DNA of 64,000 nucleotides. Source: Megasphaera coli (lineage in GTDB: Bacteria; Bacillota; Negativicutes; Veillonellales; Megasphaeraceae). The notes beneath the pieces are model-generated. The model did no database searches. It was not told where the DNA came from and was given only the letters and a program-made list of their open reading frames with translations. The stretch covers positions 301,322 through 365,321 of the forward strand of contig NZ_FMIY01000002.1 in assembly GCF_900095855.1 (NCBI RefSeq). The letters are read 5' to 3'. A program made the translations under genes and the position numbers. Shown here piece by piece: positions 3,862-53,443 of this stretch; within the stretch, counting starts at the first letter, position 1; the number at the start of each line of letters is the position of its first letter.

Positions 3862-4818
3862 ATGCGTTGTCGTTTTGCGCCGAGTCCTACGGGATACATG
3901 CATTTGGGCAATGTCTGGACGGCCCTTCTCTGTTGGCTGCAGGCGAGGCGGGGCGGCGGTACGCTGGTTCTGCGTATTGAAGATATTGATGAGGGGCGGT
4001 CGAAAAAAGAATATACGCGTGCCATCATGGAAGATCTGACGTTTCTCGGCCTCGACCGGGATGAAGGACCCGATGCGGGCGGGCCGTACGGGCCGTATCG
4101 GCAGCAGGAACGGTATAATCTGTATGAGGCGGCCATTGAACGGTTAAAGCGGCTGAATCTCGTCTATCCCTGTTATTGCAGCCGTGCCAGAATTATGGCC
4201 GTCAGCGGCGCGCCTCATGAAGGAGAGCTGAGTGTATACGACGGCCGTTGTTACGGCCTGACCGAGACGGAGCGGCGGCGACAGCGAAAAAAGCCTTCTC
4301 TCAGGCTGCATGTGCCGGAGCGAAGCATCTCCTTTACGGACGGTTTATACGGTCTCCGGGAAGAGTACTTGCCCACGAAGTGCGGTGACTTTGTCATTCG
4401 CCGCGCCGACGGCATGTATGCCTATCAGCTGGCCGTCACCGTCGATGACGGCGCCATGGGAATTACTCATGTCCTGCGCGGCAGAGATCTCCTCGGTTCA
4501 ACGGGACGGCAGATTCTTTTGTCGTCTTATCTCGGTTATCAAACGCCGGAATACACGCATGTACCTCTTCTCGTCGACTGTGCGGGGCACCGTCTCTCCA
4601 AGCGTCAACACGGTATTACGGTGCGTGAACTGCGGGCCGAAGGTATTACGGGGCGACAAATTCTTTCGTATCTTGCCTATAAGGGCGGCCTCGTTCATGA
4701 GGCATGCCTCTATGATCCGGACCGGTTGGTGCAACAGTTTGATATCCGCAATATCGGTGTGAAAGATATTGTCATAGACGCCGACCCCATAGAGGCCATT
4801 AAATATTTCGGACACTGA
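3862..4818 (+). CDS. gluQ: Glutamyl-Q tRNA(Asp) synthetase
   Basis: A 318-residue paralogue of the glutamyl-tRNA synthetase catalytic domain without an anticodon-binding domain. This family charges glutamate onto the queuosine base of tRNA(Asp). The class I signature appears as APSPTGYMHLGN at residues 6-17 and the KMSKS equivalent as RLSKRQH. A zinc site of the GluQ type is suggested by CYC followed by YDGRC near residues 110-130. Full-length GltX is about 480-500 residues, so the short length supports GluQ. It follows the M16 peptidase by eight bases and ends at a strong terminator. Confidence 0.9.
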   Translation: MRCRFAPSPTGYMHLGNVWTALLCWLQARRGGGTLVLRIEDIDEGRSKKEYTRAIMEDLTFLGLDRDEGPDAGGPYGPYRQQERYNLYEAAIERLKRLNLVYPCYCSRARIMAVSGAPHEGELSVYDGRCYGLTETERRRQRKKPSLRLHVPERSISFTDGLYGLREEYLPTKCGDFVIRRADGMYAYQLAVTVDDGAMGITHVLRGRDLLGSTGRQILLSSYLGYQTPEYTHVPLLVDCAGHRLSKRQHGITVRELRAEGITGRQILSYLAYKGGLVHEACLYDPDRLVQQFDIRNIGVKDIVIDADPIEAIKYFGH

Positions 4819-4819
4819 A

Positions 4820-4859
4820 AAAAAGAAGTATGGCAGAAAAAGCCATGCTTCTTTTTTTG
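4820..4859 (+). terminator. Rho-independent terminator after gluQ
   Basis: AGAAGTATGGC and GCCATGCTTCT pair around a short A-rich loop and are followed by seven T residues. The hairpin starts directly after the gluQ stop and closes the first transcription unit. Confidence 0.9.
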
Positions 4860-5028: not shown

Positions 5029-5058
5029 TTGTCATAAAGTGTTTGATTGTGGTAGAAT
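5029..5058 (+). promoter_or_regulatory. Sigma-A promoter of the mraZ/dcw operon
   Basis: TTGTCA at 5029-5034 and TAGAAT at 5053-5058 are separated by 18 bases. The 170 bases upstream (4860-5028) are AT-rich and contain no gene; nothing else is recognisable there. Confidence 0.7.
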
Positions 5059-5074
5059 GTGGTGAAAAGTGAAA
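5037..5074 (+). promoter_or_regulatory. Four direct GTG boxes with 10-bp period: predicted MraZ operator
   Basis: GTG occurs at 5039, 5049, 5059 and 5069, exactly ten bases apart, in the units AAAGTGTTTG, ATTGTGGTAG, AATGTGGTGA and AAAGTGAAAC. MraZ proteins are known to bind arrays of short direct repeats with this period upstream of their own gene (TGGG-type in enterobacteria, AAAGTG-type in Mycoplasma). The array overlaps the -10 element and transcription start, so autorepression is the expected outcome. Assignment to MraZ is inferred from position and spacing. Confidence 0.75.
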
Positions 5075-5103
5075 CTAAAATGTGAAAGGAGGCCGAGAGT
5101 CCG

Positions 5104-5544
5104 ATGTTTATGGGAGAATACGCGCACACAGTCGACGCGAAAGGCCGGGTCATTATGCCGGCAAAATTTCGGGAAGAATTGGGCGCAACCTTTGTCGTTA
5201 CACGCGGACTCGAAGGCTGCCTTTCCGTTTATACACAAGAAGCGTGGGCACAATTTGCGGAAAGCGTGAAAAAATTGCAGGCTTCCAAAGAAAATGTGCG
5301 CGCTTTTAAACGGTTTCTCTTCGGCAGCGCTGCCGAACTGGAATTTGATAAGCAGGGACGCATTCTGATTCCTGCGACACTGCGTGATTATGGAAAACTC
5401 ATAAAAGATGTTGTCGTTCTCGGCACGGGAGACAAAATAGAAATTTGGAGTAAAGAAGCCTATGAAGTCTATGCCGCTAAAACGGTACCCGCTATGGAAG
5501 CGATAGCTGAAAGTCTGGACAGTATCGGCGATCTGGATTTTTAG
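5104..5544 (+). CDS. mraZ: Transcriptional regulator MraZ
   Basis: A 146-residue protein of normal MraZ length with two AbrB-like half-domains. The first carries the DAKGRVIMPAKFR signature at residues 12-24 and the second the matching DKQGRILIPATLR at about residues 81-93. MraZ forms ring-shaped oligomers that bind repeat arrays in front of the division and cell-wall operon. An AGGAGG ribosome site at 5088-5093 supports this start. It is the first gene of the dcw operon, and a candidate operator array lies directly upstream. Confidence 0.97.
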   Translation: MFMGEYAHTVDAKGRVIMPAKFREELGATFVVTRGLEGCLSVYTQEAWAQFAESVKKLQASKENVRAFKRFLFGSAAELEFDKQGRILIPATLRDYGKLIKDVVVLGTGDKIEIWSKEAYEVYAAKTVPAMEAIAESLDSIGDLDF

Positions 5545-5552
5545 GAGGGACC

Positions 5553-6485
5553 ATGGCATTTCATCATCTTTCCGTACTCCGCAATGAAACTGTCCGTGCT
5601 CTCGTCGGTGATGTGGCCGGCATCTATGTGGACTGTACCTTAGGCGGCGGCGGCCACAGCTTTGCCTTGGCGGAGCTTCTTGCACCGGAAGCAATCATTA
5701 TCGGCCTCGATCAGGACGGCGATGCCGTTGCGGCGGCAAGCGAGCGCATGAAAAATGTACCTTGTAGGTTTATTCCCGTGCGGCGCAATTTCCGTTACTT
5801 GGGAGAAACCTTGGATGAGCTGGGAATAGACCGTGCAGACGGCATCATGTTTGATTTGGGAGTATCCAGCTATCAGCTTGACACGCCGGAGCGGGGGTTT
5901 TCTTATCAGCACGACGGGCCCCTCGACATGAGGATGGACACAAACGGGCGCAAGAACGCCTGCGATGTGGTCAACACGTATAGTGAGGCCGACTTATACC
6001 GTATTATTAAGGACTACGGTGAAGAACGGTGGGCCGGGCGAATTGCGAATTTCATCGTGACGGCGCGGCAAGAGGCTCCTATTTCCCGGACGGAAGAACT
6101 GGTACGGATTATAAAAAAAGCCGTGCCTGCAGGGGCCAGGAAAGACGGCCCTCATCCGGCAAAGCGGACCTTTCAGGCCATTCGCATCGAAGTGAATGAA
6201 GAACTGGCCATTTTGAAAGAAGCCATTGGAACTGCGGCGGAGCGATTGAAGCCGGGCGGCCGCATAGCCGTCATTACCTTCCATTCCTTGGAAGACCGCA
6301 TTGCCAAGCAGACCTTAAAGCGCTTGGCGGCGAATTGTATTTGTCCGCCCGATATGCCCGTTTGTACGTGCGGACACAGGGCGGTGCTGAAAGTAAGCGG
6401 GAAAGCCGTTTTCCCGTCGGCAGACGAACTGACGGCCAATCCGCGGGCGCGAAGCGCAAAATTACGTATAGGTACGCGTATATAA
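5553..6485 (+). CDS. rsmH: 16S rRNA (cytosine-1402-N4)-methyltransferase
   Basis: A 310-residue SAM-dependent methyltransferase that modifies C1402 in the ribosomal P site. The opening FHHLSVLRNETV and the SAM-binding CTLGGGGHS motif at about residues 30-38 are diagnostic, as are DLGVSSYQLD and the C-terminal FHSLEDRIAKQ and RSAKLR segments. It follows mraZ by eight bases behind an AGGAGG site, the standard order for the dcw cluster. Confidence 0.97.
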   Translation: MAFHHLSVLRNETVRALVGDVAGIYVDCTLGGGGHSFALAELLAPEAIIIGLDQDGDAVAAASERMKNVPCRFIPVRRNFRYLGETLDELGIDRADGIMFDLGVSSYQLDTPERGFSYQHDGPLDMRMDTNGRKNACDVVNTYSEADLYRIIKDYGEERWAGRIANFIVTARQEAPISRTEELVRIIKKAVPAGARKDGPHPAKRTFQAIRIEVNEELAILKEAIGTAAERLKPGGRIAVITFHSLEDRIAKQTLKRLAANCICPPDMPVCTCGHRAVLKVSGKAVFPSADELTANPRARSAKLRIGTRI

Positions 6486-24174: not shown

Positions 24175-24180
24175 AAATAA

Positions 24181-24411
24181 ACACGTGCTGTGGTTGAAAG
24201 TCGATGCCAGTCGCAGGCGAAGCGATCCACGTAAGGAACCTGATACGGTTCCGATCATAGTGCGGCCTAGAGGTAAGACCTGCCGCGAAAAGCGAGAGAA
24301 GCAGTAGTGGGGGACAATTGTCTATGAGCGAACCTTCCGGCAGGCGGGTGTGGGGGTAAAAACCAGGTCAGACGTGTAATCAGAAAAGAACTGCTTCGGC
24401 AGTTCTTTTTT
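24181..24411 (+). ncRNA. Structured non-coding RNA of unassigned class (about 200 nt plus terminator)
   Basis: No convincing gene exists at 24084-24490, but the sequence is highly structured. ACACGT at 24181 pairs with ACGTGT at 24372; the helix continues inward with CTG/CAG and TGGTT/AACCA. Inside are the hairpins GGAACC/GGTTCC (24235-24252) and GCGGC/GCCGC enclosing AGGT/ACCT (about 24262-24286), then a long, probably single-stranded or pseudoknotted G-rich part. A terminator with a TTCG tetraloop (24387-24411) follows, and a TATAAT box sits seven bases upstream. It lacks the RNase P, tmRNA, SRP and common riboswitch signatures I know. The raiA motif or a divergent 6S RNA are possible; the class is unresolved. 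Confidence 0.8.
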
Positions 24412-53359: not shown

Positions 53360-53443
53360 TGGTGCGAGTGAAGGGATTTGAACCCTTACGTCGTAAGACG
53401 CCGGATCCTAAGTCCGGTGCGTCTGCCGTTCCGCCACACTCGC
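53360..53443 (-). tRNA. tRNA-Leu (anticodon UAG)
   Basis: On the minus strand the gene begins GCGAGTGTGGCGGAACGGC, pairs with CACTCGC at the 3' end and has an encoded CCA. The anticodon stem CCGGA/TCCGG holds the loop CTTAGGA, so the anticodon is TAG, reading CUA leucine. A variable arm (CGTCTTACGACG region) and a T-arm with GGTTCAAATCC complete the class II shape. Length 84 bases. Confidence 0.96.

What the first reader, a model, noticed from the sequence alone, without database searches (positions are those of the whole stretch)
5037..5074. Four GTG boxes with exact 10-bp period at the mraZ promoter
Seen: GTG at 5039, 5049, 5059 and 5069. The boxes resemble the AAAGTG type described for Mycoplasma more than the TGGG type of enterobacteria, which is of interest for how MraZ recognition varies across Firmicutes. 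They cover the -10 box and start site.
Basis: partly seen in the sequence, partly recalled or inferred. Interest (0 to 1): 0.5.

Follow-up and report, generated by a model that had tools for sequence, protein, structure and literature searches.

The report
MraZ operator at cell-division operon promoter
Four evenly spaced GTG boxes in front of the mraZ gene look like the binding site of MraZ, the protein that controls the bacterial cell-division gene cluster; the site is real and widely conserved, so it is mostly ordinary, but in this group of bacteria the boxes appear to be fused with the promoter itself.

Summary
GTG stands at 5039, 5049, 5059 and 5069, upstream of mraZ (5104-5544) at the head of a dcw cluster. 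The four-box lattice occurs once in the window (0 in 100 shuffles) and once in its genome assembly.

It is almost certainly a MraZ operator: 135 of 200 unique mraZ upstream regions hold three or more GTGs at exactly 10 bp, against at most 2 of 200 for each other period from 5 to 19. A later set agrees (64 of 84). MraZ with a '4 box promoter' is already a solved structure (PDB 9sz7).

Less expected is the promoter. In the window's order the predicted extended -10 is built on box 2 in 58 of 58 upstreams by pattern, 56 of 58 by scoring, so MraZ and RNA polymerase should exclude each other. In the Veillonella family box 3 is replaced, in phase, in 27 of 27. An inverted-box reading was not replicated in the later set. 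Binding is inferred.

The parts
5029..5034 (+). predicted -35 element TTGTCA; starts exactly 10 bp before box 1, so it is in register with the lattice
   Evidence: (TTGTCAY in 16 of 17 f1 upstreams, TTGTAAY in the other, all at this distance)
5036..5042 (+). MraZ box 1, AAAGTGT (GTG at 5039)
5046..5052 (+). MraZ box 2, ATTGTGG (GTG at 5049); its TG is the TGn of the predicted extended -10
5053..5058 (+). predicted -10 hexamer TAGAAT between the GTGs of boxes 2 and 3
   Evidence: start at +14 from the first GTG in 56 of 58 upstreams of families f1-f4 by scoring, anchored on box 2 in 58 of 58 by pattern
5056..5062 (+). MraZ box 3, AATGTGG (GTG at 5059)
5066..5072 (+). MraZ box 4, AAAGTGA (GTG at 5069), about at the transcription start
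   Evidence: start site inferred from the -10
5085..5092 (+). ribosome-binding sequence AAAGGAGG of mraZ
   Evidence: sequence
5104..5544 (+). mraZ, 146 aa, two MraZ domains
   Evidence: PF02381, E 9.2e-38, 2 stretches
5553..6485 (+). mraW/rsmH, second gene of the cluster
   Evidence: PF01795, E 4.4e-110
4818..4858 (+). terminator-like hairpin after the upstream tRNA-synthetase-like gene, which would separate it from the mraZ promoter
   Evidence: a consensus scan; 2 found, 1.1 expected in shuffles

Best explanation
The array is the operator of MraZ for autogenous control of the division and cell-wall (dcw) operon. An octameric MraZ ring lays four subunits along one face of the DNA, one per GTG box, one helical turn apart. 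Here the four boxes run from the -35/-10 spacer to the start site, and box 2 supplies the TG of the extended -10, so bound MraZ should physically exclude sigma factor and RNA polymerase and repress mraZ and the genes behind it. Shown: the boxes, the period, its conservation, the coincidence of box 2 with a conserved -10-like sequence, and an intact MraZ with the conserved arginines. Inferred: binding, the ring on four boxes (by analogy with the M. genitalium complex), the promoter and start site, and the sign of regulation.
For: Exact 10-bp lattice, once in window and assembly. GTG-GTG distances of 10, 20 and 30 in 200 unique mraZ upstreams: 403, 258 and 124, against 10.0, 9.3 and 8.2 in shuffles. 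Three or more consecutive GTGs at period 10 in 135 of 200; at most 2 of 200 for each period 5-9 and 11-19; 23 of 200 at the harmonic 20; 0 of 200 on the reverse strand at period 10. Later set of 84: 29 of 30, 17 of 27 and 18 of 27 in the classes of L068, L044 and L104 (Bacilli, Clostridia, Bacteroidia by inference from their names), and 0 for each of periods 7-9 and 11-14. All 15 genomes searched in the genus carry the 4-GTG lattice at mraZ (places compared). MraZ here is intact: R15, D82 and R86 are invariant among 26 aligned sequences, D11 and K13 nearly so. Model pLDDT 91.8; it matches 9sz7, M. genitalium MraZ with a 4-box promoter, at Z 20.0 with 138 residues aligned and rmsd 2.5. The -10 sits on box 2 in 56 of 58 or 58 of 58 upstreams of families f1-f4.
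Against: No binding, expression or start-site data for this organism. The upstreams are related by descent, so counts are not independent (100 clusters at 70% identity from 196). The array is not universal: 21 of 200 upstreams have fewer than 3 GTGs on the best lattice, and in the later set 10 of 27 and 9 of 27 of two classes lack three consecutive GTGs. In L117 of the same order the cells after box 2 are shifted by 1 nt. The promoter is a prediction; the scan alone found 2 sites against 1.5 expected. MraZ may also act otherwise: in M. gallisepticum its overexpression went with more FtsZ (PMC8475190, passage), and N. elongata reports genes higher in wild type than in the mraZ deletion (PMC9395523, passages). 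Box 4 here departs from AAAGTGK (it reads AAAGTGA).
Confidence: 0.9

Rival explanations
1. MraZ binds these boxes but activates, or tunes, rather than represses the operon, for example by holding a distorted promoter ready for polymerase.
For: Passages report raised FtsZ after MraZ overexpression in M. gallisepticum and cluster genes upregulated in wild type compared with the mraZ deletion in N. elongata.
Against: The boxes cover the predicted -10 and the inferred start, where a bound ring would block polymerase. E. coli MraZ is described as a repressor of its own operon, and the M. genitalium mraZ mutant has raised mraW and ftsZ transcripts (PMC8475190 passages).
Confidence: 0.15
2. The repeats act in the mRNA leader (structure or translation control) rather than on DNA.
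For: Boxes 3 and 4 lie at or near the transcribed leader, and in several relatives in the genus box 4 abuts the ribosome-binding sequence (by eye).
Against: Boxes 1 and 2 lie upstream of the inferred start and would not be transcribed; the period is about one DNA helical turn; the same lattice lies at different distances from the start codon in other lineages; Rfam finds no family here (gathering threshold).
Confidence: 0.03
3. A different regulator with a GTG core, such as a controller protein of restriction-modification genes, uses the site.
For: HsdC of Mollicutes has a similar core, and MraZ can bind HsdC sites (PMC5282649, passages).
Against: HsdC spacing differs by 1 nt and it did not bind the MraZ motif; the lattice stands upstream of mraZ in several phyla.
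Confidence: 0.03
4. Chance periodicity in an AT-rich promoter.
For: None found.
Against: 0 in 100 shuffles and conserved in 15 of 15 genomes of the genus.
Confidence: 0.005

Closest known systems
MraZ operator of Mollicutes, (AAAGTGKN3)3, and the M. genitalium MraZ/4-box promoter complex (PDB 9sz7; also 9r4j)
   Same: GTG core, 10-bp period, direct repeats at the mraZ promoter; four boxes by the title of 9sz7
   Different: Only 1 of 4 boxes here fits AAAGTGK strictly (box 1); boxes 2-3 have TTGTGG/ATGTGG and box 4 AAAGTGA
B. cenocepacia PmraBc operator: four 7-nt repeats with 3-nt spacers (PMC7761207)
   Same: Four boxes, same period, GTG motif, overlap with the start site (passages)
   Different: There the repeats lie downstream of the -10; here the predicted -10 is inside the array, on box 2
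E. coli MraZ boxes (TGGG type as recalled; sequence read in L172)
   Same: GTG on a 10-bp lattice upstream of mraZ
   Different: Three boxes, each GTGGG; none of the window's boxes contains TGGG

Membership tests
MraZ operator (MraZ boxes) | three or more direct repeats with a GTG core and a 10-bp period upstream of mraZ | tested here: met
MraZ operator (MraZ boxes) | mraZ (PF02381, two domains) directly downstream at the head of a dcw cluster | tested here: met
MraZ operator (MraZ boxes) | conserved in period and place among relatives | tested here: met
   later set
MraZ operator (MraZ boxes) | overlap with the promoter of the operon | tested here: inconclusive
   overlaps a predicted and conserved promoter; no start site mapped
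MraZ operator (MraZ boxes) | specific binding by MraZ | not testable with these tools
   needs gel shift or footprint
Mollicutes subtype (AAAGTGKN3)n | every box AAAGTG followed by G or T | tested here: not met
   boxes AAAGTGT, ATTGTGG, AATGTGG, AAAGTGA: 1 of 4
E. coli subtype TGGGN | TGGG in each box | tested here: not met
   0 of 4 boxes
MraZ protein family | two DXXXR signatures (recalled as the DNA-contacting motif) and the MraZ fold | tested here: met
   D11/R15 and D82/R86; Z 21.7 to 1n0e_C, 137 aligned

The most novel reading that the evidence does not exclude
In the window's order (Veillonellales, named from its members) promoter and operator share one 10-bp lattice: -35 (TTGTCAY), box 1, box 2 with the extended -10, box 3 and box 4 are five cells of one register in the Megasphaera family, so that RNA polymerase and a MraZ ring read the same lattice. 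Some lineages also carry a half-inverted cell (GTGYCAY in Selenomonas and Erysipelotrichia, TTACCAT in the Veillonella family, TTGTCAY at the -35 of Megasphaera). The pseudo-symmetric MraZ subunit, with two DXXXR loops, would read this cell in either orientation and use it as an anchor.
Probability: 0.15. Interest if true: 0.55.

Novelty: new member of a known kind. Interest (0 to 1): 0.27.

Why it matters
MraZ controls the first genes of the bacterial division and cell-wall cluster. The comparison shows one operator grammar (AAAGTGG every 10 bp) in Negativicutes, other Bacillota, Bacteroidota and E. coli, and suggests, from predicted promoters, that it shifts relative to the promoter between lineages. 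The fusion of box 2 with the extended -10 in the window's order gives a simple, testable competition between MraZ and RNA polymerase. The 27-of-27 substitution of box 3 in the Veillonella family offers a natural test of which boxes the ring needs.

Tried and rejected
Rejected: chance; RNA element (no Rfam match here at gathering threshold); a wider MraZ regulon marked by 4-GTG arrays (one site in the assembly; a three-box pattern gave the mraZ site and one other place at C1:1546875, judged chance and not followed).

A universal inverted box: the pattern seen in the first set did not hold in the later one. First set: YCAY with CAY at +4 of a cell, 23 of 691 positions on phase against 21 of 6380 off phase after clustering. 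YCAY in box 3 of four-cell arrays 39 of 83, of which 27 are one family, against 0, 3 and 0 of 83 in boxes 1, 2 and 4. Coupling of Y at +3 with CAY in GTG boxes 6 of 23 against 3 of 256, p 1e-5. Later set: phase +4 had 5 of 396, the same as phase +3, and the coupling was 0 of 9 against 2 of 158, p 1. Within the array only L260 and L264 show such cells; L233, L276 and L302 have YCAY one cell after their third GTG-like cell. Positions +4 to +6 are also the free ones of each cell, so the phase test inside the array is partly trivial. I keep it as a lineage-restricted lead.

A fixed phase of the -10 relative to the lattice in all Negativicutes: outside families f1-f4 the promoter scorer gave mixed offsets and often picked box sequence itself (TAAAGT), so I claim it only for f1-f4. 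The pattern used includes two variants added after seeing L001 and L017; the scorer gave 56 of 58. In 5 of 10 f2 and 2 of 4 f3 upstreams box 2 itself reads ATG, not GTG.

Rows dropped or chosen: of 212 loci one (L141, an unrelated pattern hit) was not located, L029 and L140 repeat the window, L139 is truncated, and 9 were duplicates; the window was added, giving 200. L103, L105, L106 and L107 were kept although their start was placed by extrapolation. All 59 relatives with a match out of 60 searched were taken up (30 loci, 29 places fetched). Of 135 of 150 class genomes with a match I took the 30 loci returned and fetched 40 more places. The named set is the best 80 of 82. The later set is 90 loci, the 30 best of each of three searches with 54, 45 and 35 genomes matching; 1 was not located, 2 were short and 3 duplicates, giving 84. 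Family codes were copied by hand; 15 named loci were assigned by me from organism name or upstream identity.

Literature: searches; only named Veillonella, Megasphaera and Negativicutes, and it listed 10 of 3,165 papers holding two of its terms, none of them on MraZ boxes by title. This is weak evidence that the arrangement is not in print. Most subscription papers are not held; the E. coli MraZ paper was not. Papers were seen only as passages or listings.

Full report
The observation. The window sequence has GTG at 5039, 5049, 5059 and 5069. The pattern of four GTGs at 10 bp occurs once in the 64-kb window with none in 100 dinucleotide-preserving shuffles, and once in the 1.71-Mb assembly. 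Downstream lies mraZ (5104-5544; PF02381 twice, E 9.2e-38), followed by mraW/rsmH (PF01795), a short protein whose septum-initiator match (PF04977) is just under the cut-off (28.8 against 28.9 bits), and a Mur ligase, i.e. the head of a dcw cluster. Nearest named relatives of this MraZ are Anaeroglobus geminatus (88%) and Megasphaera micronuciformis (83%).

Promoter. The best sigma-70-type site in the region is TTGTCA (5029-5034), 18 nt, TAGAAT (5053-5058), with TG before the -10, 10 of 12 matches (2 sites found in the region against 1.5 expected, so the scan alone is weak). Conservation makes it credible. By a separate scorer the -10 begins exactly 14 bp after the first GTG in 56 of 58 unique upstream regions of the window's order (families f1-f4: 17 of 17, 9 of 10, 4 of 4, 26 of 27), and with a pattern anchored on box 2 it is found in 58 of 58 (two variants were added to the pattern after inspection). 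The TG of box 2 is the TG of the extended -10, and the hexamer ends where the GTG of box 3 begins. In 5 of 10 f2 and 2 of 4 f3 upstreams box 2 reads ATG, which keeps the TG. A transcription start about 7 nt after the hexamer, near 5065, is inferred.

Conservation of the lattice. From 212 loci I took 200 unique mraZ upstream regions (136 Negativicutes, 63 others and E. coli). GTG-GTG distances of 10, 20 and 30 were seen 403, 258 and 124 times against shuffle means of 10.0, 9.3 and 8.2. Three or more consecutive GTGs at period 10 were found in 135 of 200 and four in 38 of 200; for each period from 5 to 9 and 11 to 19 three or more were found in at most 2 of 200, for the harmonic 20 in 23, and on the reverse strand at period 10 in 0. 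179 of 200 have at least three GTGs in four lattice cells; 21 do not. Among Negativicutes 123 of 136 have at least three of four. In all 15 genomes searched in the genus the 4-GTG lattice is at mraZ; the only places elsewhere are two overlapping matches in one repeat of G007, and G011 has a second overlapping match at mraZ itself. In a set collected afterwards, three or more consecutive GTGs at period 10 were seen in 29 of 30 (class of Brochothrix), 17 of 27 (class of a Lachnospiraceae locus) and 18 of 27 (class of Labilibacter), and in 0 for each of periods 7-9 and 11-14. Relatedness makes these counts dependent; at 70% identity 196 regions with at least two GTGs fall into 100 clusters, and 80 of the later 84 into 66.

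Type of box. The consensus of 443 boxes in chains of three or more is AAAGTGG with a free spacer: A at -3 in 361, A at -1 in 297, G at +3 in 375. The window's boxes are AAAGTGT, ATTGTGG, AATGTGG and AAAGTGA. The outer boxes of family f1 (Megasphaera and Anaeroglobus among its members) depart from G at +3: box 1 has T in 15 of 17, and box 4 has A in 15 of 17. E. coli K-12 carries AGTGGG, TTGTGGGG and AAAGTGGG on the same lattice (L172). The proposed split between an AAAGTG and a TGGG type is thus two ways of cutting one motif. This agrees with the statement in PMC7761207 that a GTG motif is shared by B. subtilis, E. coli and mycoplasmas (passage), and with the Mollicutes motif (AAAGTGKN3)3 quoted in PMC5282649 (passage).

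The protein. Across 26 MraZ sequences R15, R66, D82, R86 and W115 are among the invariant residues, with D11 and K13 nearly so, so both DXXXR signatures (recalled as the DNA-contacting motif) are intact. The predicted structure (mean pLDDT 91.8) matches M. pneumoniae MraZ (1n0e_C, Z 21.7, 137 residues, rmsd 2.4) and 9sz7_H, titled 'CryoEM structure of MraZ in complex with 4 box promoter from Mycoplasma genitalium' (Z 20.0, 138 residues, rmsd 2.5). By that title a four-box complex is already structurally known; the coordinates were not read.

Mechanism. Most likely MraZ binds the four boxes with successive subunits on one face of the helix and blocks sigma access to the extended -10 and start site, giving autorepression of the operon. 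E. coli MraZ is described as a repressor of its own operon, and the M. genitalium mraZ mutant shows raised mraW and ftsZ transcripts (PMC8475190, passages). Against a simple view, FtsZ rose with MraZ overexpression in M. gallisepticum (same paper), and in N. elongata cluster genes are reported as upregulated in wild type relative to the deletion (PMC9395523, passages).

Variation around the array. (1) The place of the predicted promoter differs: on box 2 in families f1-f4; on box 3 in L035 and by eye in L037 and L068; upstream of box 1 by eye in Selenomonas relatives (the scorer's offsets there are mixed); in B. cenocepacia the repeats lie downstream of the -10. (2) In family f4, which holds Veillonella atypica, box 3 reads TTACCAT in 27 of 27 while box 4 stays in phase at +30, and TGGTARAATTTACCA spans the -10 in 26 of 27. 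(3) In family f1 the -35 is TTGTCAY in 16 of 17 and starts exactly one period before box 1, which entails an 18-bp spacer. (4) GTGYCAY appears as box 3 in 12 of the other 56 four-cell arrays. Points 2-4 suggested a half-inverted box, but the later set did not bear it out as a general rule, and the -35 alone may explain point 3.

Verdict. A real, correctly located and functional-looking MraZ operator; a new member of a known kind with a lineage-specific promoter arrangement. Binding and regulation remain to be shown for this organism.

Noticed in passing
window 24178-24380 (+): raiA RNA (RF03072), 179.3 bits, full-length match.
   Followed up: no
window 53363-53443 (-): tRNA gene (RF00005, 59.9 bits).
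   Followed up: no
L008, L033, L001 and other family f4 loci, upstream of mraZ: Box 3 of the MraZ array is replaced by TTACCAT in 27 of 27 unique upstreams with box 4 still in phase; a dyad TGGTARAATTTACCA spans the -10 in 26 of 27.
   Followed up: partly
L144-L151, L164, L201 and other Negativicutes loci: By eye, the array in many of these follows a poly-T tract (probable terminator of the upstream gene) and a CCnGAA-like stretch instead of a clear -35/-10; the promoter there is unclear.
   Followed up: no
window 5073-5084: By eye, about 13 nt with an extra off-lattice GTG (5082) separate box 4 from the ribosome-binding sequence; in several other members of the genus box 4 runs straight into it.
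   Followed up: no
window 3862-4818 (+): Class I tRNA-synthetase-like gene of 318 aa (PF00749, E 2.2e-52), short enough to be a glutamyl-Q tRNA(Asp) synthetase (name recalled), directly upstream of the mraZ promoter.
   Followed up: partly
L159, upstream of mraZ: A Negativicutes mraZ with no recognisable array (1 GTG on the best lattice).
   Followed up: no
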